Positions 21,134-35,553 of a stretch of 42,465 nt of DNA are shown one piece after another. The position numbers and the translations under genes were made by a program. A model generated the notes under the pieces. It was not told where the DNA came from. It worked only from the letters and a program-made list of their open reading frames with translations, and did no database searches. Within the stretch, counting starts at the first letter, position 1. Every line of letters begins with the position of its first letter. The stretch comes from Candidatus Poribacteria bacterium. GTDB lineage: Bacteria; Poribacteria; WGA-4E; PCPOR2b. The stretch lies in the NCBI GenBank assembly GCA_021295755.1, contig JAGWBT010000069.1, positions 1-42,465 of the forward strand. The letters run 5' to 3'.

Positions 21134-22408
21134 TCACAAACGCATATCCTCCGGCAAGTCACACATCTCCGCCATGGGACCGAAAATTCCTGTGACATCC
21201 TTTCGATATACATTTCCGCTGAGGATGTCAACAATGCCCTGCTGACATTCTGGAAACCGTCCCAAAAATCTTGCAAAACTGAAGTCTTTTGTATAGAAGG
21301 CGTAAACCAACTTACGGATTGCCTCCATTCCCGCAACAAATTCTGTGCCGAACCTTCCCAACTGCTCCGCTGAAAAATCCTCCTTTTCCAATGCTTCATT
21401 AATGGTGTCCGCTGCCATTTCGCCGGATTTAAGTGCGAGAAATAATCCAGAGGAGTAAACGGGATCCAGAAACCCAAAGGCATCCCCCACTAACACCCAT
21501 CCATCTCCAGCCATACGGTTGGCGCGATATGAAAAGTCCTTTGTGACCTTGACCGGGAACAGTTGCTTGGCATCAGCAAGACGTGGCTTCAAGGCAGGGC
21601 ACTTCGCGAGTTCTTCGTCAAAAATCGCTTGATGGGAAAGAGTGCCATCACTCCCCCTTCGGTCTTGCAGGAGATAGTCCAAATCACCCACAACCCCTAT
21701 ACTCACTCGATCGTGCGGGAGCGGAATAGACCAGAACCATGAATCCTTGCTCTCTGTGTGGAGAATTAGCGTCGCGCCTTCGTCAATTCCCTCGTCCCGA
21801 ATCCCGCCCTCAAAATGGGTGAAGATTGACGCTTTTTTCAGCGTTGGTTCTATGGTGTTTATCTTCAACTTCCGCGAAATTAGGGCGCTTTGACCTGTCG
21901 AATCCACAACCACCTTAGCTGGGAGTTCGGCTATCCGTCCATCCCCAAGTTTTGCTCGGACACCAACAGCTTTTTCCCCTTCAAACAACACCTCGTGCAC
22001 ACTGACACCGCGCTGAACTTCCACCCCTTTTTCCTGCGCGTTTTCGAGCAGCATCTGGTCAAACTCGCTGCGTAACACCTGCCAAGTCATAGAAGACTCG
22101 TGGGGATCGTTGCGAAAAAAATAGAAGGGTGCAGACGCTTTACCAGAACTGGCATAAAACTGAACACTATACTTTTCGGGAAAATGGCTGGCTTTCAGTT
22201 TTTTGATAACCCCCAATCGCTTAAATGTCCAGTAAGTCGCTGGCATCAGCGATTCGCCCACCTTAAACTGAGGAGACTTATCGCGCTCCAAAAGCAGCAC
22301 CCGATGACCTTTTTCTGCTACCAGTGTTGCAGTAGTGCTACCCCCAGGTCCACCACCGACGACGATTACATCATAACTTTCGTTTTTAGTTGCATCTTTT
22401 TTTTTCAT
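21134..22408 (-). CDS. FAD-dependent halogenase-like/geranylgeranyl-reductase-family oxidoreductase
   Basis: The 424-residue flavoprotein has the FAD loop VVGGGPGGSTTATLVAEKG (about residues 16-34), FKVGESLMPATYWTF (49-62), and the second FAD motif VLVGDAFGFLDPVYSSG (305-321). At 224-229 it carries W-F-W-S-I-P, matching the W-x-W-x-I-P signature of flavin-dependent halogenases. It may thus halogenate a small aromatic; geranylgeranyl reductase-like or simple monooxygenase activity is the alternative. ATG 22408 lies just after the gspD stop; a longer frame would start inside gspD. It is the last gene of the T2SS-directed string, 64 bases after gspD, and a flavin reductase partner is not nearby. 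Confidence 0.8.
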   Translation of the reverse strand: MKKKDATKNESYDVIVVGGGPGGSTTATLVAEKGHRVLLLERDKSPQFKVGESLMPATYWTFKRLGVIKKLKASHFPEKYSVQFYASSGKASAPFYFFRNDPHESSMTWQVLRSEFDQMLLENAQEKGVEVQRGVSVHEVLFEGEKAVGVRAKLGDGRIAELPAKVVVDSTGQSALISRKLKINTIEPTLKKASIFTHFEGGIRDEGIDEGATLILHTESKDSWFWSIPLPHDRVSIGVVGDLDYLLQDRRGSDGTLSHQAIFDEELAKCPALKPRLADAKQLFPVKVTKDFSYRANRMAGDGWVLVGDAFGFLDPVYSSGLFLALKSGEMAADTINEALEKEDFSAEQLGRFGTEFVAGMEAIRKLVYAFYTKDFSFARFLGRFPECQQGIVDILSGNVYRKDVTGIFGPMAEMCDLPEDMRL

Positions 22409-22472
22409 CGGTTCCGTATTTGCCTCATCGCAACCCAAGTTGCTATCTAGGTGAAGCGGAGGGGAAGTTACA

Positions 22473-25463
22473 CTATTTCTCCGATGGCTGTTTTTCGTTT
22501 TCCTGATTCTGGCCATTTAAACGCCACTCCTCAGATTGCCGCTCTAGTCTCCCGTAATCTTCCGGATTCTGAATATCAATAATATGCGGTGTGATGATGA
22601 TGACAACCTCAGAGTTTTCCGCTACGGTTTCTGTCTTTTTGAAGAGACCACCGATAAGCGGAATATCTCCTAGAATGGGCACTTTGCTTTCGATTTGCTG
22701 ACGTTTCTCCTTGATCATTCCACCCACCACAATCTGTTGTCCATCTTCTACATCAATGAAGGCACTAATTGAGCTATCCTCAGTAATAGGTGCGTTGAAA
22801 TCGGTGAACTCGACAAAATTACTCAAGGTGATCGTTGAGATATCTAAGCCGATAGTGCGTTTTTTACTATCCTCCGTCTGCGATTTCGCGATATGCGGCG
22901 TAAGTGTGATAGTGACTCCAACCGGTGGGTCAATGAAGTCGTAGTTGAACAGCGGCTGCGTCAGATTATCAGCCAAACTCGTAACATCTGCACTTTGTAG
23001 ATACGGGACGCGTCTGCCAGAACTCCATGTGGCTTCACGGTTATCACGAGTGAGCAGTGCCGGTGTTGATATGGTCTGCACCTTGTTTTCACGTATCAAG
23101 GTGTGGAGCAAAGCCATATATTCCTTTGTTGCCAAACTGATGTTAAAGCCGCTGATCTCCTGATTCAATCCAAGTTCCGCACCAAATTCCCCTACCAATG
23201 GGTTGCCATTCCGAACCTCTGCGCCGAACAAGCCGCGTTCTCGCGCTGTCAACTCCACGCCGAGTTTCGTGCTTTCATCGAGAGTCACTTCGAGGATCTG
23301 TATATCAATCCAAACCTGTCCCCTCACAAAGTCAAGTTCACGGATCATGGCTTCTACCTGCTCCATGTACCGCTGCGCGGTCGTTACGAGTACCGAATTG
23401 GTCTGATTGTCCGCTTCTACCTGAACTTGGCCACGTAGTGAATTGATGTCATTCTGTTCAGGCGTTCCACCGCGTGCGATGAAACGCCCAAAGTTGAACC
23501 CACGGTCGCCTTCTGCGTCTTCGCCCCATACATCTTCGAGCAGATCTTCGGTGTCTTCAGCGTTTGCGTATTCAAGGCGGATTAATTTCGTAACCTCCCG
23601 CTGTCCTACAGGGGTCGGTGTATCGAGTTCTTCAACGAACTGTGTGATGAGTGTGAAATTTCGTTGTGTTGCGGTGGAGATGATTATGGCATTGAGCGTT
23701 GGATAAGCCTCGGCAGTTACATTTCCAGCGAGGGATCCCTGGTTCTGATTCCGCGCCCGTCCGGGGACGAAAAAGAAGAAACCGCCGCTTCTATTGTTCG
23801 AGCCTTGATAGACGTTGTTAATAATATTGGCGACATTTTCCGCGTCCGCATATTGTAGCTTATAAATGCGAGTTCCCCACTCCTGATCGGGCATATTGAC
23901 ATCGAGACGGTTAATCAGACTGTCAATCGTCTCAAAGTTTTGGGAAGCTGTCGAGACTAGCAGGGCGTTTAAGCGGGTATCCGGCACAAGGTGAACCTCC
24001 CCCTGAACCCCAAATCCGCCGGCACTATCGCCCCGTTGCTCTTCCCGACGACGCCACCACCACGGGAGGTCTTCATCCTGACCGGAATCACCACCTTCAA
24101 AGAGATCGCGTAGGTTATCGGATAGGCTTTGCGACTCAGCAAACTTCAGGAAGTAGATTCGGATCTCTTCTTGCGGATCGGCTTGATCCAGTTGCGCAAT
24201 AATTTTCTCAATAATGGGAAAGTTTCGCGGATCGGAGGAGATCAGCACAGCGTTCAGACGATCGCTTGATGAGATATTTACAGCCCCAACTATACTCTGA
24301 TACTCTCCCCCATCCTCGGCTCGACGCCGCATCAAATCGCGTCGCGTCCGCTCCCACTCGCGCCGTTCCCACCATTCTGCATTTCTCCCGGGACGCCTGC
24401 CGGCGCTCACGCCCGTTATTAACTCTTCAAGCACTTGTGCCACCTCTTGGGCAATTGCGTAATTTAGCCGAAAGATTCTGATCTCCGTTTGAATGCTCGG
24501 TGCTGTGTCAAGTTGTCTAATCAAATCTCTCAACACAACAAGGTTAGCTTCGGAGGCTTTTACAACCAACGAGTTTGAACTCTCGTCGGCGGAAATCTGG
24601 ATCCGCCCACGAATCATGTCGATGCCGCCGCCTTCCTCTCTCGCACGCTCCATCATCTCCTGCATCTCTTCGGGCTTGCTCGTTGAACCCATCTTTCGCA
24701 GGAGGTTCGCAACTTCGCCTTCCTGTTGGAACACGTCATTTAGGGTCTGGGCAAGTGATGCCGCGGTGGCGTTCTGCAGCGGAATGATCTCCACTTTGAG
24801 CGGGGTGTCCGGTGCCTCATCCGCTACCTGCAAAATAGTTGCAATTCGATGAATATTGGAAGCGACGTCGGTAATAATTAACGAGTTACTATTGCCATCC
24901 GCGAAAATATTCGCCGCTTTGCTCAACAGTGGTTTGAGACTACTCACTAGCTCCGATGCGACAGCGCTGTTCAGTTGAATCATATATGTCTGGATCTCGT
25001 CGGTCTGTTCAATCAGACTTGGATCTGCCGTAATTCGCTTCACTGGCACTTTCATTCTGACTGCCTTCTCGAATGTCGTAATCAGCAAGGTGTTATTCGT
25101 CCGAATCATGGTCAGATCGTATTGAGCGAGAACCGTTTTAATTTCTTCTAGTGTTTCGTCGATTGTTACATTCTTGAGGTTAGTCAGTGCAAACTTCTTG
25201 TCCTTGATTTCGTTTTCGGAGGCAATAATCGTCAGGTTCGTCTCTGCGCTGATGAATTTAATTAAGCTTTGCAGATTCCCGCTTGGAAAATCAAAGTTAA
25301 ATCGAATCGCTTGACCGGCTTCGTCGCGCTCAGTAACCTCCATCCCTCTCTGATCGGCTTCCTGTGCCAACACTGACACAGTAAAAGGTCCTGTGGCCCA
25401 CCCAATGAATATCGACAGTATGAAGCGGATAAGTACCCGAACGGTGGGGTGAGCACTGTCCAT
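22473..25463 (-). CDS. gspD: GspD, type II secretion secretin with six N1-type modules
   Basis: The secretin forms the outer-membrane exit channel of type II secretion. From ATG 25463 it is 996 residues: signal peptide about 1-34, N0 domain about 55-135, six repeated N1-type modules at about 158-215, 223-320, 326-427, 432-522, 530-616 and 622-712, and the membrane domain 715-965. Each module has the pattern (S)NSL/LNA-hydrophobic strand, such as SNSLIITDV and LNALLVSTA. The pore domain shows VPYLQSADV, PPVGVTITLTPHI, VEDGQQIVVGGMI and VPILGDIPLIGGLF. Typical GspD has N0 plus three such modules in about 650-700 residues, so the periplasmic part is expanded. Two long acidic/arginine-rich insertions (WWERREWERTRRD; LPWWWRRREEQ) sit inside modules 3 and 4. 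A longer frame begins at 25586. Confidence 0.93.
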   Translation of the reverse strand: MDSAHPTVRVLIRFILSIFIGWATGPFTVSVLAQEADQRGMEVTERDEAGQAIRFNFDFPSGNLQSLIKFISAETNLTIIASENEIKDKKFALTNLKNVTIDETLEEIKTVLAQYDLTMIRTNNTLLITTFEKAVRMKVPVKRITADPSLIEQTDEIQTYMIQLNSAVASELVSSLKPLLSKAANIFADGNSNSLIITDVASNIHRIATILQVADEAPDTPLKVEIIPLQNATAASLAQTLNDVFQQEGEVANLLRKMGSTSKPEEMQEMMERAREEGGGIDMIRGRIQISADESSNSLVVKASEANLVVLRDLIRQLDTAPSIQTEIRIFRLNYAIAQEVAQVLEELITGVSAGRRPGRNAEWWERREWERTRRDLMRRRAEDGGEYQSIVGAVNISSSDRLNAVLISSDPRNFPIIEKIIAQLDQADPQEEIRIYFLKFAESQSLSDNLRDLFEGGDSGQDEDLPWWWRRREEQRGDSAGGFGVQGEVHLVPDTRLNALLVSTASQNFETIDSLINRLDVNMPDQEWGTRIYKLQYADAENVANIINNVYQGSNNRSGGFFFFVPGRARNQNQGSLAGNVTAEAYPTLNAIIISTATQRNFTLITQFVEELDTPTPVGQREVTKLIRLEYANAEDTEDLLEDVWGEDAEGDRGFNFGRFIARGGTPEQNDINSLRGQVQVEADNQTNSVLVTTAQRYMEQVEAMIRELDFVRGQVWIDIQILEVTLDESTKLGVELTARERGLFGAEVRNGNPLVGEFGAELGLNQEISGFNISLATKEYMALLHTLIRENKVQTISTPALLTRDNREATWSSGRRVPYLQSADVTSLADNLTQPLFNYDFIDPPVGVTITLTPHIAKSQTEDSKKRTIGLDISTITLSNFVEFTDFNAPITEDSSISAFIDVEDGQQIVVGGMIKEKRQQIESKVPILGDIPLIGGLFKKTETVAENSEVVIIITPHIIDIQNPEDYGRLERQSEEWRLNGQNQENEKQPSEK

Positions 25464-25684
25464 TGTATTCTGGTGCTCCGAAGTTGATTGGACACCTACC
25501 TTCCGCGATCCACCAGAATTGCTGGTCAGGTATTTATAACATCTCGGTTGCTGAAAACACATTGTCAAAACCTTCCTTATAAACATCTGAAGAAAATGGA
25601 ACCCTAGGACACAAGGACGCAGCGATGTAAAAAATGGAACCCTCGCAACTTCGCACTTTATCTCGTTTTACGCTTCACGTTTCG

Positions 25685-27136
25685 TTAGAGAACTCGTGCA
25701 ATCATTGAGAGGTTTGTGCTGATGGTCGTTTCCTTCTTGTCCGCTATCGTGATTTGCAGATCTTTGACCCGTAACCATTTCGAGCTAGATTCAATCGCGT
25801 ATATTAACCGGACCACCCGCTCAATTCTATTGCTGAAGCGCATATCAACGATGTACGTCTCAGGTTGATAGGTGGAAGGAACGCCTACAAGCCAAGTGTG
25901 AAGTTGGTCTTCCTGTTCCAGAATCTTATCAACATATTTAGTGAACGCACGGAGTTGTTGATCATAATCCAACGCCTTCTCAGTATCTTCTCCGTAATCC
26001 GTTTCATAGCGGTTGATTAATTTTTCAAATTTCGACAGCAGAACACTGTTAGGCTTGAACTTAATAGATGTCGTTTGTTTCGTGCTGCCAATCCCTAAAA
26101 ATCCACCCCTCGCTTCGTTAGTCTCTGCGGCGATTTGAGCTGCCAGAAATCCCCTCCTAAATTCAACTGCTCCAGCTAGTTGCTGTTTCAGGTTTGATTG
26201 AAGGAACTGGAGCAGTTCAATACGCAGTGTTAAAGGGATGATCTCGGGCAGCGATACGAATTGGCGATTAGCTTCCTGATTCACCGATTTCGGCGGTGAT
26301 GGCTTATCGAGTACAGGTGCGGAATCAATGTCTGACTCGGGCCCTTCAACTGTATCATCATCGATTGGCAGCGCTTCCGATTTGATTTCTACTACGCCTT
26401 CCTGACTCTCATCTTGCGCATCATCTTTCCCCCACCAAGCATCGAACATTGCCTCCATCGCCACTTCTTCAGTTTCGATTTGCTGTTCTTCCTCCTCCTC
26501 CATTATGGCATTCTGTTGTGATTCTAACTGTTGGAGTTCATTCGCTAGTTCGCCCAAATAGAGATAATACACTAGATTTTTCTTCGTTTGCGGCGGGAGA
26601 TTTTCAGATTTTGCCCCCGGCATCGGTCTAATATTGAGCTGATAATTAGGGCGCAGCCCAGCTTTTCTTGCGAGATCGGAGATTCGTCTTGAAATGACCG
26701 CTTGCGCCTGCTCACCCTCAAAGATAGGTCCCCGTATCTCCTTTAGTTTGTCTAAACTCTGAAATTCACCGTAATGTTTCTTATAGGCGAGCAGTGAATC
26801 TGCCTTATTTTCAAGAGCAGGGTGCAACGTCGCTAATGCGGCTGCGCGGTTTGCTCGGTTGAGGGCTTTTAAGTCAACCCGATTTGCAATTTCTTCAAAC
26901 AGAGAGTCAGAGATGATCTGCCCTTCTAAACCGACTTGTGCTTGAATATCTCGGTCAATTTGCTGCGTGACTTGAGCAAGTTGAACCAAGTTCTGTGCCG
27001 TTTCCAGTTTCTGTTGTTTGGCGGTAAGTTCATCGCCCGGGAACCCCTGTCGAATTAACGGCTCGACGAGAAAAATTAAGAGCACAATGCCAACAACAGC
27101 AAGTAAAATGATTTCACGTCGTGTGAGTTTTCTCAT
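25685..27136 (-). CDS. GspM/PilO-like inner-membrane scaffold protein
   Basis: The 483-residue protein has a single N-terminal membrane helix (IILLAVVGIVLLIFLV, residues 9-24), a long periplasmic helical part, a highly acidic linker at about residues 205-290 (EEEEEQQIETEEVAMEAMF), and a C-terminal ferredoxin-like end: YIVDMRFSNRIERVVRLIYA, then WLRVKDLQI. The last part resembles PilO/GspM, which pair with PilN/GspL to link the motor with the secretin. It is longer than usual (GspM about 160-180, PilO about 200 residues). The start ATG overlaps the stop of the PilM-PilN-type gene by four bases (27133-27136), so the two are translationally coupled. The assignment rests on position and fold-like pattern rather than a strong motif. 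Confidence 0.65.
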   Translation of the reverse strand: MRKLTRREIILLAVVGIVLLIFLVEPLIRQGFPGDELTAKQQKLETAQNLVQLAQVTQQIDRDIQAQVGLEGQIISDSLFEEIANRVDLKALNRANRAAALATLHPALENKADSLLAYKKHYGEFQSLDKLKEIRGPIFEGEQAQAVISRRISDLARKAGLRPNYQLNIRPMPGAKSENLPPQTKKNLVYYLYLGELANELQQLESQQNAIMEEEEEQQIETEEVAMEAMFDAWWGKDDAQDESQEGVVEIKSEALPIDDDTVEGPESDIDSAPVLDKPSPPKSVNQEANRQFVSLPEIIPLTLRIELLQFLQSNLKQQLAGAVEFRRGFLAAQIAAETNEARGGFLGIGSTKQTTSIKFKPNSVLLSKFEKLINRYETDYGEDTEKALDYDQQLRAFTKYVDKILEQEDQLHTWLVGVPSTYQPETYIVDMRFSNRIERVVRLIYAIESSSKWLRVKDLQITIADKKETTISTNLSMIARVL

Positions 27137-28836
27137 TTGCCGACCTTCTTTTTTTCTAGAAAAGCGCTTTTCTGACTACTGCTTTCGGTTTTCCGAGACA
27201 GATTGTGATTAAGATCGCGAGTTTGGGCGAACTGATGTATCGCATCTTTTGATAGATTACAGGTGATCTGCGCCTGAAAAATTGGCTTCTTATCGCGTTC
27301 AATGCTTGTGACCTGACCAGATTTGATATTTGTAAATGCCCCCGATTGTGCCATAGTGCTTATTGTCTGGCTCACATCTGGGTGCGATTGGGCTTCAATG
27401 TTGAAAGTAATCTTCGCTCTTTCAAGGTCATCTAATCTGGTAATGTTAAGCCCCGTCCAAGCGACCTTTGTGCGATCAGAAAACCGTACGCTCAACTCAC
27501 GCACGATATCGAGCGGAGAAACACGAGGTGCTAAAAGATTCACGATTGCTAAATCTTTGGTCAATGTTCTTTTCGCGTTGGATTCGGCTTGGCTGATGTT
27601 TCTGATCGCTCCATCCAGAGCAACAATTTTTGCCTGATGGATTCTGCTCTGCGTCAGCGCACCCAACCCAAGTCCTACTAGCAGCACCAATCCAGCTGCA
27701 ACAGCCATTAGCGTCCGCTTCCGCTGCTGAGCCTGTGTCAATTTGACCTTTTCTTCTGAGGGAAGGAGATCCAAAGAGATCTGGGAGGTTAACGCATTAA
27801 CACCTAGCCCCAAGGCAACAGCGAGTGTATCGCTAAAGCTGTCTACAGATTGGGAGTCGGAGCGTTGTTCGTCCCAGACCTCCTTGAAAGCATCAAGTGG
27901 ATTCCAAAGCAGAACTGGTACTTCTAAGCGATCCGCGATATAGTCTGCCAGGCCAGAAACCCGCGCTCCCCCACCGCACAACCAGATTTTACTGACGATC
28001 CTATCACCATCAAGGTTAAGGTCTCGTTTTGCCCCGTTTATAGAGCGTTTCAACTCTACGACTAGTCCATCCGCCCATTCGTACGAGGGATTAGAGGCTT
28101 GAAGGTGCTGATTCAGCGCAGCATCCATAATTTTTCGCCGCTCAGCGATCTCAAAATCGCTCCCCATCTCTTGCTGATATAGATGGGTCAGATGATTGCC
28201 GCCAATAGGAAAACTCCGTGAGAACCGTAGCGCCTCTTCAGCGAGCAAGCACAGGTCTGTCCGGCCCGCACCAATATCCACAACCATCGTCATTCCAGTT
28301 GACGAATCGTCTTTGTGATTTGCGATTCCCGCCAACGCACTCGTTGCGAGGGTAGAAGGCATCACACCTCTAGGTGTAATACCGAGTGGTTTCAGATAAT
28401 CTATCTGCTGTTGTACCGCTTCACGTCTTGCGGCAATTAGCTCGACGGAGATGCCATCCTCCGAACGATGCACGTCATGGTGGTCGTAGATAGCACCTTC
28501 CACCCGGAAAGGGAGTTCCGTTTCGGCCTGTATAGCAACTAGGTTAGAGAGTTGGTCATCTGTTGCCGCAGCGGGCAGGTTTGTCAATCGACGCGATGTG
28601 ACTAACAAGCGGGGAATTGATAACGCCACCGAAGTACTACGTCCGCCAACACCTCGCCACACACGCTGCAAGGCCTCGGAGATCACCTCAATCGGAACTT
28701 CTGTCGTAGGGGCTGTGTAGGGATACGCTTCTATCCCTACGTTGACGAGGCGAATTCCGGCTGCAGTCTGCTCTAGCTGCACCAACTTAATTGCGCTTGT
28801 GCCAATATCGATGGACACGATTTGGTTTTTTGCCAT
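27133..28836 (-). CDS. PilM-PilN-type fusion, GspL equivalent
   Basis: The first 345 residues are a PilM-like actin-fold ATPase: IVSIDIGTSAIKLVQLEQ at the start, VVDIGAGRTDLCLL in the second lobe and IWLCGGGARVSGLADYI near its end. Then comes ISLDLLPSEEK, typical of the N-terminus of PilN, a membrane helix at about 375-396 (LMAVAAGLVLLVGLGLGALT), and a periplasmic ferredoxin-like PilN domain (LDIVRELSVRFSD... AQSHPDVSQTISTMAQSGAF). In type II systems these parts form one protein, GspL; in type IV pili they are separate PilM and PilN. This protein has the joined layout with pilus-type halves and should recruit the GspE ATPase to the membrane. Confidence 0.85.
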   Translation of the reverse strand: MAKNQIVSIDIGTSAIKLVQLEQTAAGIRLVNVGIEAYPYTAPTTEVPIEVISEALQRVWRGVGGRSTSVALSIPRLLVTSRRLTNLPAAATDDQLSNLVAIQAETELPFRVEGAIYDHHDVHRSEDGISVELIAARREAVQQQIDYLKPLGITPRGVMPSTLATSALAGIANHKDDSSTGMTMVVDIGAGRTDLCLLAEEALRFSRSFPIGGNHLTHLYQQEMGSDFEIAERRKIMDAALNQHLQASNPSYEWADGLVVELKRSINGAKRDLNLDGDRIVSKIWLCGGGARVSGLADYIADRLEVPVLLWNPLDAFKEVWDEQRSDSQSVDSFSDTLAVALGLGVNALTSQISLDLLPSEEKVKLTQAQQRKRTLMAVAAGLVLLVGLGLGALTQSRIHQAKIVALDGAIRNISQAESNAKRTLTKDLAIVNLLAPRVSPLDIVRELSVRFSDRTKVAWTGLNITRLDDLERAKITFNIEAQSHPDVSQTISTMAQSGAFTNIKSGQVTSIERDKKPIFQAQITCNLSKDAIHQFAQTRDLNHNLSRKTESSSQKSAFLEKKKVGK

Positions 28837-28974: not shown

Positions 28975-29961
28975 CTAGTTGTTTGGAAATAGTTCAAGCG
29001 TTGCCTCGCTCTTTGACTTTCCTTGTTCCTTCTTCTTCATATCCTGCAATGTGTTTCGCTCCCAGAAAACCCCGTCGGCATATCCTTGAATAGTTGTATC
29101 AGTTTCAGCCATCTGCAATCTTTTCTGAGTGTAAAAACAATATTCTTCGTCAATTTCAACCATGACGAAACTTCGCCCTAATTTCTTCGACACGACTCCT
29201 GCTGTTCCGCTCCCCGCGAAGGGATCGAAAACGATGTCTCCTCTTCTGGAACTTGCAAGAATCAGTTTCGCTAACAGCTTTTCAGGTTTTTGCGTTGGAT
29301 GGAGAGTGTTTTCCGGCATTGACCAGAAAGGAATTGTAAGATCTGTCCAGATGTTTGATGGTGCAGTGAGTCGAAAGTTTCCATCTGCCTCTTCTGTCCA
29401 ATCTTTTGGCTTTCCATCTTCCCGATAAGGCGCAATCGCTTGTCGCTTTAATTTCACAACATCTGCATCAAAATAGTAATCGTTTGAAACTGTACAAAAC
29501 CAAATATCCTCAGAATTATTCTTCCAATTCTTTTTTGCCCCGCGTCCTTTTTCCCTCTCAAAAGTGATTCTGTTTCTGACAATCAGATACTTATCGCAAA
29601 CGAACTGAATTGCTGTGGAAGATCGCCAATCCCCACAGATATAAACCGACGCACCCGGCTTTAACAACCGGATCAGTTTGGGTAGCCAAGACTCCATCCA
29701 TTCCATATAACCCTCGACTGACTGCTGCTTAAAAGAATAGGTGTTAAAATCCTTGGTCAAATTATACGGCGGATCGAGAAAGAGGAGATCGATAAAATGT
29801 GAGGGTAGCCAATTGAGGATATGGTGAAGATCTTGGTTGATGACTCTGTTCAAGATGCTATTCGCTGAAGCAGGACCGGCGATTTTTAATAAATGCTGCC
29901 GGTAGTCCGCTCTTTCCTGATCTGATAGTGTTATTGTTCGGTTTCGTGGTGCCTTCTCCAT
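28975..29961 (-). CDS. DNA methyltransferase, N6-adenine/N4-cytosine type, beta-class order
   Basis: The 328-residue enzyme transfers methyl from S-adenosylmethionine to adenine or cytosine in DNA. The catalytic motif IV is LLFLDPPYNLTKDF (DPPY at about 63-66) and the SAM-binding motif I, FDPFAGSGT, lies near residue 245. Catalytic motif before SAM motif is the beta-class order. HPTQKPEKLLAKLI (motif X-like) precedes motif I. No restriction enzyme or specificity subunit is adjacent, so it looks solitary. It sits between gspK and the GspL-type gene with only about 14 bases to the gspK stop, so it is co-transcribed with secretion genes. ATG 29961 has GTGGAG upstream; GTG 29973 is possible. Confidence 0.92.
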   Translation of the reverse strand: MEKAPRNRTITLSDQERADYRQHLLKIAGPASANSILNRVINQDLHHILNWLPSHFIDLLFLDPPYNLTKDFNTYSFKQQSVEGYMEWMESWLPKLIRLLKPGASVYICGDWRSSTAIQFVCDKYLIVRNRITFEREKGRGAKKNWKNNSEDIWFCTVSNDYYFDADVVKLKRQAIAPYREDGKPKDWTEEADGNFRLTAPSNIWTDLTIPFWSMPENTLHPTQKPEKLLAKLILASSRRGDIVFDPFAGSGTAGVVSKKLGRSFVMVEIDEEYCFYTQKRLQMAETDTTIQGYADGVFWERNTLQDMKKKEQGKSKSEATLELFPNN

Positions 29962-29974
29962 AGCGATCTCCACT

Positions 29975-31447
29975 CTAGTTCTGTCTCCAATACTTAGTCA
30001 CAATCTGTTCCCCGGTGCGATCAAGGGCACCAGCGCAAGAGGCAACTGTTTTGCCGAGATTGTCAATCCCTTCAGTTTCAATGAGAAAACCGTGCGAGCG
30101 ATAGGTAACTAACTCTGCAATCTGACGGAAAGTGTCCATATCAATCCCCTCGACCTCAAGGAGTTGACTGATGCTCTCAAAAGGATTCCCCTCAGTCCCT
30201 GCTTCCGCCAATGTCTCTGCCCGCTCACTGTCTTCAGGTTCCGATTCACGACGGCTGATAATTGCACCCGCTTTGTCCGCGTCCATGCCGGGCAACAGTT
30301 GTAATATCTCTTGCGGTGCCGTGTTGATGTTGATGAAACCGCTGACTACTGCCTCATCCTTTGTGGTAATCTGATCCACAATGCTGCTAAACTCTTCCTC
30401 CGTTATCAGTTTAACTTCTTTGAGTTGATCAACATTTTGGAAGTTGCCTTGGCTGTTACGGTGGTCGATAATCCGATCGGCGATACCCTCATCAATACCG
30501 TCTAACGTCTCCAACCGCCCGGCATCGGCGGTGTTGATGTTGACGATATTCTCCTCTTCTTCATTGCTTTCCACACTAATCTGTTCACGAATGTTGTTAA
30601 AAACCTGCTCCGTGACCGCTGTTGCATCAATCAGATCGCTGATACTATCGAACTCACGCTGTTGGACCAATGCGTCCTTTTCCCCTTGAGAGAAGACGAG
30701 CTGATTGTTGTTCCCTCGAATCTGTGTCAACTGTTGTCCATCCGCATTGTTAATATTAACGCGTGGATTGCCGTTGGCATCGGTATTTTTGTCGATTGAA
30801 TATACTGTTACCAGATCGACCAATCCGGGAACGCTCTGTTGGGTCCCAGCTGCCTCCGCCGCTATCCCGCTACCTACAGCCTCGGTTGCACTGGGACCTG
30901 CAGCTCCGTATAACAGATCTGGTGTCACGCCTGGGACTCGCGCTAGGTCTCGCACGGTGCGGTAGGGTCTTCCCTCTTCAATCGCCTGAGAAAGTGGTTG
31001 TTCTGTTATCTCCGGTTGTTGATAACCCATGAGAGTCAATAGACCTTCAATCATACTGACATCTACGGTGTTGATGTTGATCTTGGCACCTTCGTCAGTG
31101 ATTCTAACACGGTAAGTAAGAGCATTTACGGAGGCGACGGCATCTCCGATCTGTTCCTCTAGCCCGTCCGCCCAATTTTCGCCGAGTGAATCGTAAGGGG
31201 TTTCATCCCCACGCAGCATCACAATTGCCCTTTCAAATCCCGCTTTTGCTGCGTAATGGAGCTTTATTCGATCTGCGAAATTTGCCTGCGCCCGCTGCTC
31301 CAAACGAATTGAATATAAAAAATGGGTTGCAAGGACGGAGAGAACTGTCAGCAGCCAGAGCGTCGAAATAAGAGAAAGTCCACACTCGCAGGTGTGTAGC
31401 GGCGATTTGCATCTGAGATGAAATGGTGCGCCTTTCCTGCTTTCCAT
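29975..31447 (-). CDS. gspK: GspK-like minor pseudopilin with added helix-hairpin-helix-like repeats
   Basis: GspK caps the pseudopilus tip. The leader ends at G23, followed by LSLISTLWLLTVLSVLATHF; position +5 is serine instead of glutamate, a known GspK trait. The body is 490 residues against about 320-330 for standard GspK. Four NINT/A-type motifs appear: KININTVDV (about 122-130), RVNINNADG (229-237), IVNINTADAGRLETLDGIDE (301-320), and FININTAPQEILQLLPGMDA (371-390). The third and fourth, followed by IADRIIDHR and AGAIISRR, look like ComEA/GspK helix-hairpin-helix units. GAGGG lies upstream of the ATG. It follows gspJ by 11 bases. Confidence 0.87.
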   Translation of the reverse strand: MESRKGAPFHLRCKSPLHTCECGLSLISTLWLLTVLSVLATHFLYSIRLEQRAQANFADRIKLHYAAKAGFERAIVMLRGDETPYDSLGENWADGLEEQIGDAVASVNALTYRVRITDEGAKININTVDVSMIEGLLTLMGYQQPEITEQPLSQAIEEGRPYRTVRDLARVPGVTPDLLYGAAGPSATEAVGSGIAAEAAGTQQSVPGLVDLVTVYSIDKNTDANGNPRVNINNADGQQLTQIRGNNNQLVFSQGEKDALVQQREFDSISDLIDATAVTEQVFNNIREQISVESNEEEENIVNINTADAGRLETLDGIDEGIADRIIDHRNSQGNFQNVDQLKEVKLITEEEFSSIVDQITTKDEAVVSGFININTAPQEILQLLPGMDADKAGAIISRRESEPEDSERAETLAEAGTEGNPFESISQLLEVEGIDMDTFRQIAELVTYRSHGFLIETEGIDNLGKTVASCAGALDRTGEQIVTKYWRQN

Positions 31448-31458
31448 TCTTTATGCCC

Positions 31459-32364
31459 TCATCCACCTGGTCCAGCGGCGGCTCCACCGGGCGGTTGTTC
31501 ACTGAAGTTCACGCTCATTGGAAGATAAACCATTGTCGATTGGGTTATTGTACTGCTGCTGGTATTCTCGCTCTGCTGACTGTTTCCACCCCCAACAGTT
31601 ATCCAAACAACAACAGATGTCGGAATCATCTCGGTGTCGTCCCACGACTCATACCACTCTTCGCCATCGTAGTATCGCACATCGAAGGAAGTAATCTGAT
31701 CGATGATTGGAACAATATTCACATAGATTGGATTCCCCGCTTCATCCTCGGTGGGGAGGCTCTGCGAATCAAGCAGCGGTTGAATAACGGTTTCCACCTC
31801 CAACGCCGTCGTCGAAAGTCGGTAAAGGGCTAATCCACTCTCCACTTCACTATCTGCTGTCAAAAACTCACCACCCACCTCTGTCCTATTTTCTTGTTCG
31901 CTCCCAATCTGTCGAGCGGTATCTTCTCCAATATAGTAAGCGATTCGCTGGACATCGCTTACAAAGTTATCCTGATTGAGATCCTCATCTGCTACCACCG
32001 TTTGGTTTGCTGCATTCAATTCAGCGAGAAACGGGTCGGGATCGATATGAATCAACGTCACAAAACTGATTAAATCCCGATTAATCCCTTCCTCGATCGG
32101 ATTATCCTGCGACACAATGACAAGAGACTCATCGCCTTGTACAGCTTGCAGATTGCTCAAGTCTGTGGCAACGCGCTCCAACGCTATTCGACATTTCTGT
32201 GTCATTACAATCCGTGATTCAGATTTTTGATAAACATCCAAGGCAACATTAAACGCCGTGTAGGAGGCACCTCCAATAATGATTAGGATACTGACAGCGA
32301 CGAGCAATTCAAGTAAGGTAAAACCGTCGGCGTGGAGCGTAAGCCGTGAAATGTGAGATCTCAT
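31459..32364 (-). CDS. gspJ: GspJ-like minor pseudopilin
   Basis: From ATG 32364 the product is 301 residues, with the prepilin leader MRSHISRLTLHADG cut before FTLLELLVAVSILIIIGGAS; glutamate is at +5. Position between gspI and gspK, length and the C-terminal SFDVRYYDGEEWYESWDDTE segment (common to GspJ) support the call. The ATG overlaps the gspI stop by four bases (ATGA), which indicates translational coupling; a longer in-frame start at 32475 would lie within gspI and lacks support. An acidic middle region and a glycine-rich tail extend it beyond the usual 190-230 residues. Confidence 0.85.
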   Translation of the reverse strand: MRSHISRLTLHADGFTLLELLVAVSILIIIGGASYTAFNVALDVYQKSESRIVMTQKCRIALERVATDLSNLQAVQGDESLVIVSQDNPIEEGINRDLISFVTLIHIDPDPFLAELNAANQTVVADEDLNQDNFVSDVQRIAYYIGEDTARQIGSEQENRTEVGGEFLTADSEVESGLALYRLSTTALEVETVIQPLLDSQSLPTEDEAGNPIYVNIVPIIDQITSFDVRYYDGEEWYESWDDTEMIPTSVVVWITVGGGNSQQSENTSSSTITQSTMVYLPMSVNFSEQPPGGAAAGPGG

Positions 32365-32825
32365 CCGCCGCTCCCTTGTCCCTGTTGACCACCCTGTGCC
32401 TGATCCTGTGGTATCTGACGGTCTGCGAGATAGGTGCTCGCTGAAACTAGCCTTTCTCTGCCACGCTCCTGCCATGTGACGGTAACGGTAACTGAGCGTA
32501 GCCCTTCAATCTCATCCAATTCCACATCTTGAACATCTGAATGCCAACGGAACCGTGAATCCTCTCCAAATTCACCATTCTCTTCGCCGATATCCGGATA
32601 ACCCTCGGCCTCAACCGCCGCCAACCGAAATTTAAGGAGATACAAGGCGGTTGTTCTGTTTTCCGCCAGTGCTTGCCCTTTGGCCGCTTCCGTAAAGGAA
32701 CGGAGTAACGTCGGCAGGGCTAGTGACAAAATGGCTAATGTGACGACGATTTCGATTAGGGTAAAGCCGTTTTTGTCGTCCCCAGATCGGCGGAAAAGTG
32801 AGATTAGATTATTCAGAGGATTCAT
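32361..32825 (-). CDS. gspI: GspI-like minor pseudopilin
   Basis: The 154-residue protein has a leader ending KNG and a mature start FTLIEIVVTLAILSLALPTL with glutamate at +5. The following helix AAKGQALAENRTTALYLLKF fits GspI, in which aligned segments contain A-N-as-L-A. It overlaps gspH by 17 bases and gspJ by four. With GspJ and GspK it would form the pseudopilus tip complex. The tail is rich in glutamine and glycine. Confidence 0.84.
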   Translation of the reverse strand: MNPLNNLISLFRRSGDDKNGFTLIEIVVTLAILSLALPTLLRSFTEAAKGQALAENRTTALYLLKFRLAAVEAEGYPDIGEENGEFGEDSRFRWHSDVQDVELDEIEGLRSVTVTVTWQERGRERLVSASTYLADRQIPQDQAQGGQQGQGSGG

Positions 32826-33540
32826 CTGTCAACTCCAACGTTTCAAGTTGCTGCGAGTTAATTTTTTCAAGACGCACCCGTCCCGTTGCGTTTTCGACTG
32901 TTATAGACATTGTTTTACTGCGCTGATCTTGAATATATAGGACGGTGTCCTCCGACGAGCCTGTTGGAGAAAAGTAGATATAATCCACACCGGTATTTAT
33001 TTGAATAGTCTGAAAATTATGATTCGTGATCATGCGTGCTAAACTCACGTTATGCCCCGGTTTCTGTGGTATTCCGAGGATTGCGTTTGTTCGTGAAGGA
33101 GACATTTGCTGCAATGTTGTGTTGCCTTGATCTGCGGTTGGTTGTTGGGCGGGTCGCAAACTTGAAGAACTCGCGGTTAGAGGCGTGGACGGGTCTCCGA
33201 GATTGAAAGTTTCGTTGGAGGCAAGCCAGTAGCGGTTTGTCGTCAAATCAAACACAACGAGGTAAGCTGCCCGCTCAGTAATTGCCATATCACGCGCAAA
33301 GTTGAGCATATCTCGGATGGCGTGGGCGGTGGATTTCAAGCGCGTTGATGCGGCGAATCCACGTAGAGATGGCATCGCAATAGAGGAGAGAATTGCGATC
33401 AACGCAAGCACGATCATGATCTCAATCAGCGTAAAGCCATTTGGGATGAGCGGATATAACTCCTCCTTACCATGTAGGGAACAACTGTTGCATCGGGTTG
33501 AACCCCTTTCTGAACGCAAAATCCGGTTGGGTAAGTGCAT
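32809..33540 (-). CDS. gspH: GspH-like pseudopilin
   Basis: From ATG 33540 the product has 243 residues with a fairly long leader (35 residues, ending LIPNG) and mature start FTLIEIMIVLALIAILSSIA with glutamate at +5. The next segment, STAHAIRDMLNFARDMAITE, and AYLVVFDLTTNRYWLA are typical of GspH/FimT proteins. Its tail, INTGVDYIYFSPTGSSEDTV, also fits GspH. TTAAAGG is upstream of ATG 33540; a TTG at 33579 gives a longer form. It lies 68 bases after gspG and overlaps gspI. Confidence 0.85.
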   Translation of the reverse strand: MHLPNRILRSERGSTRCNSCSLHGKEELYPLIPNGFTLIEIMIVLALIAILSSIAMPSLRGFAASTRLKSTAHAIRDMLNFARDMAITERAAYLVVFDLTTNRYWLASNETFNLGDPSTPLTASSSSLRPAQQPTADQGNTTLQQMSPSRTNAILGIPQKPGHNVSLARMITNHNFQTIQINTGVDYIYFSPTGSSEDTVLYIQDQRSKTMSITVENATGRVRLEKINSQQLETLELTDESSE

Positions 33541-33608
33541 GTCTTTACCTTTAAGGAGTGAGACAAATGTTCGGTTCAATAAAGAACGACAGTGTGTGCC
33601 AATCTGCC

Positions 33609-34058
33609 TTATTGATCTATCTCCTGAATCCAGTTTGTGATGTCAGCGTTGAAGTCTGTACCTCCTTCCCTGCCATCCTTACCAAACGAATAGAGGTCGT
33701 AACTGTAACCTTCATGAAGGCCGGGATAGACATAGATGTAATTGTTGCCCCATGGATCTGTGAAAACTGGTTTGTTAATATAAGGACCACTCCAATTTTC
33801 GGGTTGCGGATTGGGCATTTGCCACAGTGCCTGTAGATTTTGTTCTACCGTTGGATAGTCTCCGATTTCGATCGCATACATCTCTAACGCGTTTTCCAAA
33901 GCGCTAATCTCCATCTTGGCTTTGGCGACCTTTGCCTTATCCGGCGCATTCAAGACCCGCGGTGCAATAAAGCTCGCCAACAGACCGAGAATAACAATAA
34001 CAATCGTAATTTCAATAAGCGTCAGCCCCGATTCATCTGATTTTAACTGTTTGAACAT
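33609..34058 (-). CDS. gspG: GspG, major pseudopilin
   Basis: The 149-residue protein has a short leader MFKQLKSDESG and mature start LTLIEITIVIVILGLLASFI; leucine at +1 replaces the common phenylalanine, and glutamate is at +5. The GspG signature follows: KAKMEISALENALEMYAIE, YPTVEQNLQALW, and the calcium-site region TDPWGNNYIYVYPG ... YSYDLYSFGKDGREGG. The length is normal. It is the main subunit polymerised into the pseudopilus. An ATG preceded by GGAGGTAG supports the start. Element D copy 2 separates it from gspF upstream. Confidence 0.95.
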   Translation of the reverse strand: MFKQLKSDESGLTLIEITIVIVILGLLASFIAPRVLNAPDKAKVAKAKMEISALENALEMYAIEIGDYPTVEQNLQALWQMPNPQPENWSGPYINKPVFTDPWGNNYIYVYPGLHEGYSYDLYSFGKDGREGGTDFNADITNWIQEIDQ

Positions 34059-34329: not shown

Positions 34330-35553
34330 CTATCCACTGATCGAGGTGCTGGCTTCAAAGATCGGAAGGATCATCGCAACTGCAATAAATCCAATCAGTA
34401 ACCCCATTAATAGAATCACCACGGGACCAATTGAGTTGGTAAGTCGTTCTAGATTTTTCTTGATTTCCAGATCGTAATATGTTGATAGTTTCGTCAGCAT
34501 CTGTTCAGGATCGCCGGATTCCTCACCAATCGCAACCATGTGGGTCAGTAGCGGCGGGAAGACAGCACTTCGCTCCAATTCTCGTGACAAAGTCGATCCG
34601 CGCTCGATTTCTTGTTCCGCACTTGCGACCGCGTTCCCGTAAACCAAATTGCCGATGGTATCCTTGACAACGCGAAGTGCCGGCAGCAGTATCACGCCAT
34701 TTTCAAGCAGCGTTGCCATTGTTCGCGTAAACCGTACCAGTGCAAAGTTACTGAAGATTATCCCAATAATCGGGAGTTTGAGTTTCACTCGATCAAAAGC
34801 CAGCTGTCCGCTTTCCGTGCGAATATACTGTCTGAGTCCCACGACGCCGCCAATTATCGCAATTAAAATGATCCACCAGTAAACACTTAAGAAATTAGTA
34901 ACGCCAATAAGAAATCGTGTCGGACCGGGCAATGCAACATCCAACTCTGCGAACATACCGGTGAATTTAGGGATAACAAATGTCATCAAAACCGCCACCG
35001 CACCGACGCTTAACGCCAGCAAAATGGCGGGGTAGAACAAGGCAGAGGTCACTTCAGTTTTGAGAAGCCGTTGTCTTTCGGCAAACTCAGCGAGCCGTTC
35101 CAACACGACACCGAGAACCCCACCCGCTTCGCCCGCTCTTACCATATTGACATACAACTCGGAAAATACCCTCGGATGCTGTGCAAGTGCATCGTTAAGC
35201 GGTGAGCCGTGTTCGACATCATATTTGACCTGCTCAACGACCCGCTTGAGCTCGACGCTCGTAATCTGTTCTAGCGTCACCCCCAAAGCGCGAGATAACG
35301 GAACGTGGGCGTTAATCAACGTCGCCATCTGATAGGTGAAAAACTCAACCTCTGTCGCCTTAATCCGAGTAGGTAAGAAAGGAATATGAATCCCTTTTCG
35401 ATCTTGAGTTTCTGCACTATCCTCAACGATGCTTGTGGGCCAATATCCCATCACCTTCAGTTTCGACACAAGTTCAGCCTTACTGCTCGCTTCTTGTGTA
35501 TTGGTGACCACCGTTCCAGTGGTCGTCAGAGCTTCGTAACGGAATCTTGGCAT
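34330..35553 (-). CDS. gspF: GspF, type II secretion inner-membrane platform protein
   Basis: The 407-residue product has the standard duplicated GspF/PilC cytoplasmic four-helix domains with three membrane helices. Conserved motifs are FTYQMATLINAHVPLSRALG, the P-VFSELYVNMVRAGEAGGVLG core of the first repeat, FTRTMATLLENGVILLPAL, and FPPLLTHMVAIGEESG in the second repeat. The C-terminal helix PVVILLMGLLIGFIAVAMIL and the end PIFEASTSI are typical. AGGAAAGGA upstream supports ATG 35553. It lies 52 bases after gspE. Confidence 0.95.
   Translation of the reverse strand: MPRFRYEALTTTGTVVTNTQEASSKAELVSKLKVMGYWPTSIVEDSAETQDRKGIHIPFLPTRIKATEVEFFTYQMATLINAHVPLSRALGVTLEQITSVELKRVVEQVKYDVEHGSPLNDALAQHPRVFSELYVNMVRAGEAGGVLGVVLERLAEFAERQRLLKTEVTSALFYPAILLALSVGAVAVLMTFVIPKFTGMFAELDVALPGPTRFLIGVTNFLSVYWWIILIAIIGGVVGLRQYIRTESGQLAFDRVKLKLPIIGIIFSNFALVRFTRTMATLLENGVILLPALRVVKDTIGNLVYGNAVASAEQEIERGSTLSRELERSAVFPPLLTHMVAIGEESGDPEQMLTKLSTYYDLEIKKNLERLTNSIGPVVILLMGLLIGFIAVAMILPIFEASTSISG

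What the first reader, a model, noticed from the sequence alone, without database searches (positions are those of the whole stretch)
22473..25463. Secretin with six N1-type modules
Six repeats of the N1 fold pattern precede the pore domain, where T2SS secretins normally have N0 plus three. The N-terminal part would form a channel roughly twice as long, which may span an unusually wide periplasm or hold a large cargo. Two modules carry W/R/E-rich insertions.
Basis: partly seen in the sequence, partly recalled or inferred. Interest (0 to 1): 0.6.

Follow-up and report, generated by a model that had tools for sequence, protein, structure and literature searches.

The report
Type II secretin with seven rings
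A sponge-associated bacterium (Candidatus Poribacteria) encodes the outer-membrane channel of a protein-export machine with six stacked building blocks where E. coli has three; this longer channel is conserved across its phylum, and some of these bacteria carry a second, shorter channel gene while having only one export motor.

Summary
ORF 22473-25586(-), probable start at 25463, is a GspD secretin. It has six Secretin_N (PF03958) modules, each above Pfam's cut-off on its own, preceded by an N0 domain: seven predicted periplasmic rings. E. coli K-12 GspD has three modules in the same scan. The gene closes a type II operon (E-F-G-H-I-J-K-L-M-D) of Candidatus Poribacteria. Every full-length ortholog counted, across at least nine families of the phylum, has six modules, so the architecture is old and maintained. 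N1, N2 and N6 match canonical positions; N3-N5 are the extra modules, N3/N4 being the closest pair. N2-N6 each carry a loop insertion at the same site, with conserved W/R or F-rich motifs. The 'wide periplasm' reading is weakened: this genome and three to four relatives have one GspE and one GspF but also encode a second, shorter GspD (four modules here), next to its own GspC-like gene. A long vestibule with loop 'gaskets' is the likeliest function, but is inferred. Thermus PilQ (N0 plus five modules) is the nearest described precedent. New variant of a known kind; phyla other than Poribacteria could not be surveyed systematically.

The parts
22473..25586 (-). gspD, six-module type II secretin (1037 aa as ORF; 996 codons from the probable start at 25463)
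   Evidence: Pfam, NCBIfam TIGR02517 393 bits against cut-off 351
25362..25463 (-). probable N-terminal signal peptide (M42 to about A74/Q75)
   Evidence: hydrophobic stretch ending SVLAQ, read from the sequence; conserved in position in alignment A1
25059..25310 (-). N0 domain
   Evidence: weak STN match; orthologs hit PF21305 GspD N0 up to E 1e-11
24810..24986 (-). module N1 (no insertion)
   Evidence: PF03958 46.9 bits; matches E. coli N1
24498..24794 (-). module N2
   Evidence: PF03958 56.5 bits
24171..24479 (-). module N3 (extra)
   Evidence: PF03958 44.5 bits; closest to N4, hhalign E 4e-34
23895..24161 (-). module N4 (extra)
   Evidence: PF03958 33.0 bits
23613..23873 (-). module N5 (extra)
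   Evidence: PF03958 47.6 bits
23331..23591 (-). module N6, next to the pore domain (counterpart of canonical N3)
   Evidence: PF03958 43.7 bits; best match of the last E. coli module
24288..24416 (-). insertion in N3 between helix 1 and strand 2 (..EWWERREWERTRRDLMRRR..)
24000..24104 (-). insertion in N4 (..PWWWRRREEQ..); the two W invariant in A1
23727..23807 (-). insertion in N5 (..GGFFFFVPGR..)
23430..23525 (-). insertion in N6 (..FNFGRFIARGG..)
22575..23099 (-). Secretin pore domain (Pfam match)
   Evidence: PF00263 124.9 bits
25685..27136 (-). gspM-like (483 aa; no Pfam match; assigned by position and N-terminal membrane segment)
   Evidence: conserved between L and D in relatives
27133..28836 (-). 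gspL (PilM-type)
   Evidence: PF11104 E 8e-36
29975..31447 (-). gspK with four HHH_3 stretches
31459..32475 (-). gspJ-like pseudopilin
   Evidence: T2SSJ E 1.5e-5, just below cut-off
32361..32825 (-). gspI-like pseudopilin
32809..33579 (-). gspH-like pseudopilin
33609..34058 (-). gspG, major pseudopilin
   Evidence: T2SSG E 2e-38
34330..35553 (-). gspF, the only one found in the genome
35606..37351 (-). gspE ATPase, the only strong match in the genome

Best explanation
This is the GspD secretin of a type II secretion system of Candidatus Poribacteria, in an extended form: N0, six ring-building modules (N1 to N6) and a standard pore domain. Shown: the six modules, the operon, conservation through the phylum, and that N3-N5 are the additions relative to canonical N1-N2-N3. 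Inferred: subunits assemble into a channel with seven stacked periplasmic rings, about 27-29 nm long if three rings are added to the 20 nm PulD; the extra rings lengthen the vestibule in which the pseudopilus and folded cargo move, bringing its mouth closer to the inner-membrane platform; and the conserved W/R and F-rich loops of N2-N6 act at successive levels as gaskets, guides or ring-interface clamps, as the insertion at the same site in the T3SS secretin InvG does. Why six rather than three is not settled. A demand for vestibule length or volume is preferred over a fixed response to periplasm width.
For: Six Pfam matches each over cut-off; GspD equivalog model over cut-off. T2SS genes all around, with the operon order kept in about 40 relatives. 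Six modules in every full-length ortholog by an own HMM and in 14 orthologs by Pfam. AF2 secondary structure with six beta-alpha-beta-beta-alpha units; Foldseek best hits are T2SS secretins, ExeD 1.3e-22 and E. coli GspD 1.4e-22. Module relationships: N3-N4 closest pair, N1 and N6 match canonical ends. Loop motifs conserved to the most distant genomes. InvG has its variable insertion between helix 1 and strand 2 of N3, where it stabilises rings and meets the filament (PMC6155069). PulD is 20 nm long with N0-N3 (PMC6882859). Thermus PilQ shows that such modules stack as rings (PMC5745081).
Against: The AF2 model is of low confidence overall (mean pLDDT 56, pTM 0.29), and a two-module model failed (pLDDT 44), so ring stacking and loop direction are not shown. 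No oligomer could be modelled. Nothing shows expression or cargo. A four-module GspD in the same genome with no second platform shows that six rings are not strictly required to reach that platform, if the two share it.
Confidence: 0.72

Rival explanations
1. Periplasm-width ruler: the poribacterial periplasm is unusually wide and the secretin needs seven rings to reach from the outer membrane to the inner-membrane platform, as proposed for Thermus PilQ.
For: Thermus PilQ, N0 plus five modules, is said to span most of a wide periplasm (PMC5745081). The six-module form is found throughout the phylum.
Against: Own genome and G003, G004, G012 (and G009, whose copy has an in-frame stop) encode a second GspD while holding one GspE and one GspF; it has four modules where counted. 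In PulD systems GspC bridges the remaining gap (PMC6882859). No width data found for Poribacteria.
Confidence: 0.25
2. Alternative channels on one motor: the six-module GspD and the four-module GspD are interchangeable outer-membrane parts, each with its own GspC-like adaptor, that dock on the single E/F/L/M platform and serve different cargo.
For: One GspE and one GspF but two GspD in G000, G003, G004 and G012. A GspC-like gene stands next to the four-module GspD in L117, L118, L122 and L123. GspC-like HR domains elsewhere in all 83 genomes searched.
Against: MAGs are about 92-97% complete, so a second platform could be missing. G007, which also has the four-module GspD, has two GspF. No expression or interaction data. 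The four-module GspD could be idle or serve another purpose.
Confidence: 0.35
3. Neutral expansion: tandem copies of the ring module were gained and kept without a specific advantage, and three modules would do.
For: N3 and N4 are close copies of each other (hhalign E 4e-34), which fits simple duplication.
Against: The count is six in every full-length ortholog across many families, and loop motifs specific to each module are conserved; neutral repeats usually vary in number.
Confidence: 0.12

Closest known systems
GspD of canonical T2SS (E. coli GspD, Klebsiella PulD, Pseudomonas XcpQ/XcpD)
   Same: N0, PF03958 modules and Secretin core; T2SS operon; TIGR02517 over cut-off; top Foldseek hits
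   Different: Three PF03958 modules in E. coli K-12 against six here; the literature describes N0, N1, N2 and N3 for T2SS (PMC10550240)
PilQ of Thermus thermophilus
   Same: Unusually many stacked N rings; long loops forming an extra periplasmic gate (PMC5745081)
   Different: Type IV pilus and DNA-uptake secretin, 13-mer, N0 plus five modules; here a T2SS secretin with N0 plus six
InvG (T3SS secretin)
   Same: Variable insertion between helix 1 and strand 2 of N3, the same site as the insertions here (PMC6155069)
   Different: Only N0, N1 and N3; one such insertion, against five here
Second poribacterial GspD (G000:C49, locus L117)
   Same: GspD with N0 and several modules; same genome
   Different: Four modules, 817-codon frame, outside the operon, next to a GspC-like gene

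Membership tests
Type II secretin GspD | C-terminal Secretin pore domain PF00263 | tested here: met
   E 7.4e-35
Type II secretin GspD | Scores over the GspD equivalog model TIGR02517 | tested here: met
   393 bits, cut-off 351
Type II secretin GspD | N-terminal N0 domain | tested here: met
   STN weak in the window protein; PF21305 E 1.1e-10 and 1e-11 in orthologs
Type II secretin GspD | Encoded with T2SS platform and pseudopilin genes | tested here: met
   E, F, G, H, I, J, K, L
Type II secretin GspD | N1-N2-N3, i.e. three PF03958 modules | tested here: not met
   Six modules. This is the usual count, not a formal criterion of the family; it makes the protein a variant
Type II secretin GspD | 15-fold ring in the outer membrane | not testable with these tools
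   no multimer prediction available
Type IV pilus secretin PilQ | Scores over the PilQ model TIGR02515 | tested here: not met
   211 bits, cut-off 284
Type III secretin SctC | Scores over TIGR02516 | tested here: not met
   178 bits, cut-off 238
GspC (HR-domain partner; gene outside the window) | Matches Pfam T2SSC PF11356 over cut-off | tested here: not met
   Best 20.8 bits against 27; but the top three PDB hits of the profile are GspC, best E 0.011, so 'GspC-like' only

The most novel reading that the evidence does not exclude
One type II secretion motor in Poribacteria serves two interchangeable outer-membrane channels of different length: a seven-ring GspD with a detached GspC-like protein, and a five-ring GspD with its own adjacent GspC-like protein. 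Ring number would then be a means of sorting cargo.
Probability: 0.3. Interest if true: 0.72.

Novelty: new variant of a known kind. Interest (0 to 1): 0.48.

Why it matters
T2SS secretins are usually described as N0 to N3. A phylum-wide T2SS with seven predicted rings gives a natural test of what ring number does: whether it sets reach, chamber volume or gating. The presence of a shorter GspD gene in some of the same genomes, apparently with a single platform, makes the question sharper and testable.

Tried and rejected
Full-length AF2 gave the six-fold secondary-structure pattern but low confidence; a separate N3-N4 model was worse and was not used. The plasmid collection gave 607 records with a similar protein but none covering 80% of the query, so no six-module relative appeared there. 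The literature searches that ran found no paper on a poribacterial secretin or T2SS and nothing on one platform with two secretins. Poribacterial periplasm width: one ultrastructure paper consulted, no data. GspC compensation: the idea that GspC linker length offsets ring number was considered and dropped, because the linkers of the GspC-like proteins vary widely among basal lineages.

Full report
What was claimed and what is there. The ORF is 22473-25586 on the minus strand. Pfam finds six Secretin_N stretches and one Secretin core. Searched singly in the genome, the six stretches lie at 24810-24986, 24498-24794, 24171-24479, 23895-24161, 23613-23873 and 23331-23591, and all exceed the curated cut-off. 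E. coli K-12 GspD, scanned the same way, has three. An N0 domain precedes them: weak in the window protein, clear in two divergent orthologs (PF21305, E about 1e-10 and 1e-11). The predicted periplasmic part therefore has seven domains against four.

What system it belongs to. NCBIfam calls it GspD over cut-off, and PilQ and SctC under cut-off. Upstream in the same orientation lie E, F, G, H, I, J, K, L and an M-like gene; M has no Pfam match and is named by position. About 40 relatives, all Candidatus Poribacteria MAGs, keep most of this gene order where the contig reaches. One prepilin peptidase lies on another contig.

How general it is. Most genomes of the phylum hold a GspD frame of roughly 920-1100 codons. 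An HMM built from the modules counts six in every full-length ortholog (in L115 one module is split into two hits, and Pfam gives six; L070 is truncated). Pfam gives six in 14 orthologs, nine and five. The count is thus old and stable.

Which modules are extra. Profiles of each position were scored against E. coli GspD and compared with each other. N1 matches E. coli N1; N6 matches the last E. coli module; N3 and N4 are the closest pair (hhalign E 4e-34), then N5-N6 and N4-N5. The simplest reading is that N3-N5 arose by duplication between N2 and the module next to the pore. This is inference from similarity, not a dated tree.

The insertions. N2 to N6 each carry an insertion between helix 1 and strand 2; N1 has none. 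Motifs specific to each module are kept even in distant families: W/R-rich in N3 and N4 (PWW in N4), FFFF-type in N5, F/R-rich in N6. In InvG the insertion at this same site of N3 contributes to a periplasmic constriction in one state and, with the needle present, threads between N3 and N1 and stabilises the ring (PMC6155069). By analogy the loops here may be gaskets, filament guides or ring clamps; the model is not good enough to tell.

Structure. AF2 on 20 orthologs gave mean pLDDT 56 and pTM 0.29, with modules near 70 and the order beta-alpha-beta-beta-alpha six times. Foldseek's best hits are T2SS secretins (ExeD, GspD, PulD). A two-module run failed (pLDDT 44). PulD, with N0-N3, is 20 nm long (PMC6882859). 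Adding three rings of about 2.5-3 nm each (own knowledge) suggests 27-29 nm. E. coli inner-to-outer membrane distance is given as 30-32 nm under hyperosmotic conditions (PMC8824477), so such a channel could come close to the inner membrane in an ordinary periplasm.

A second secretin and one motor. The genome has two Secretin matches. The other, on contig C49, has four modules and stands next to a gene with a GspC-like HR domain. The genome has one GspF and one GspE. G003, G004, G009 and G012 also have this GspD type with one GspF and one GspE, though the G009 copy carries an in-frame stop; module counts for G003, G004 and G012 were not made singly. G007 has two GspF, and G001, a one-contig genome, has only the six-module GspD. 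If both GspD use the one platform, ring number cannot be fixed by periplasm width alone. MAG incompleteness is the main caveat.

GspC. The own genome has no Pfam T2SSC match. In basal lineages a gene with an HR-like domain stands between M and D. Its profile finds HR-like ORFs in all 83 genomes searched, one in the own genome on contig C113 and up to 15 in some. The top three PDB hits of the profile are GspC chains, but weak (best E 0.011), and PF11356 stays under cut-off. They are called GspC-like here.

Verdict. The gene is a new variant of GspD, nearest in ring number to Thermus PilQ, which has N0 plus five modules and is called unusual by its authors. How common such GspD are outside Poribacteria could not be measured, and this limits the novelty claim. 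The function of the extra length is inferred.

Noticed in passing
G000:C49 (L117:13843-16293 -, GspC-like at L117:16254-16946 -): Second GspD with four modules and an adjacent GspC-like gene, in a genome with a single GspE and GspF.
   Followed up: partly
L126, L127, L128, L129, L130, L132, L133, L134 between gspM and gspD; own copy L140:3041-3778 +: GspC-like HR-domain gene in the operon of basal lineages but unlinked in the window's genome. Many copies look like secreted proteins with a cleavable signal peptide (sequence reading only).
   Followed up: partly
whole genomes, (G025 and G028: 15 matches each): Up to 15 GspC-like HR-domain ORFs per poribacterial genome; their role is unexplained.
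   Followed up: no
window 29975-31447: GspK, the tip pseudopilin, has four HHH_3 stretches (two T2SSK), where E. coli GspK has one T2SSK match; a second expanded part in the same machine.
   Followed up: partly
L064, L121, L124 (genus g6): Tandem pair of six-module gspD genes at the end of the T2SS operon.
   Followed up: partly
window 28975-29973: A DNA methyltransferase-like gene (name from sequence reading) sits inside the T2SS operon between K and L; found only in the window, L032 and L034 among the relatives compared.
   Followed up: no
window 21134-22516: FAD-dependent halogenase/oxidoreductase-like gene (PF04820) overlaps the 3' end of gspD; kept next to it in the closest relatives only.
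   Followed up: no
G009:C57 (L122): The four-module GspD of this genome is broken by an in-frame TAG.
   Followed up: no
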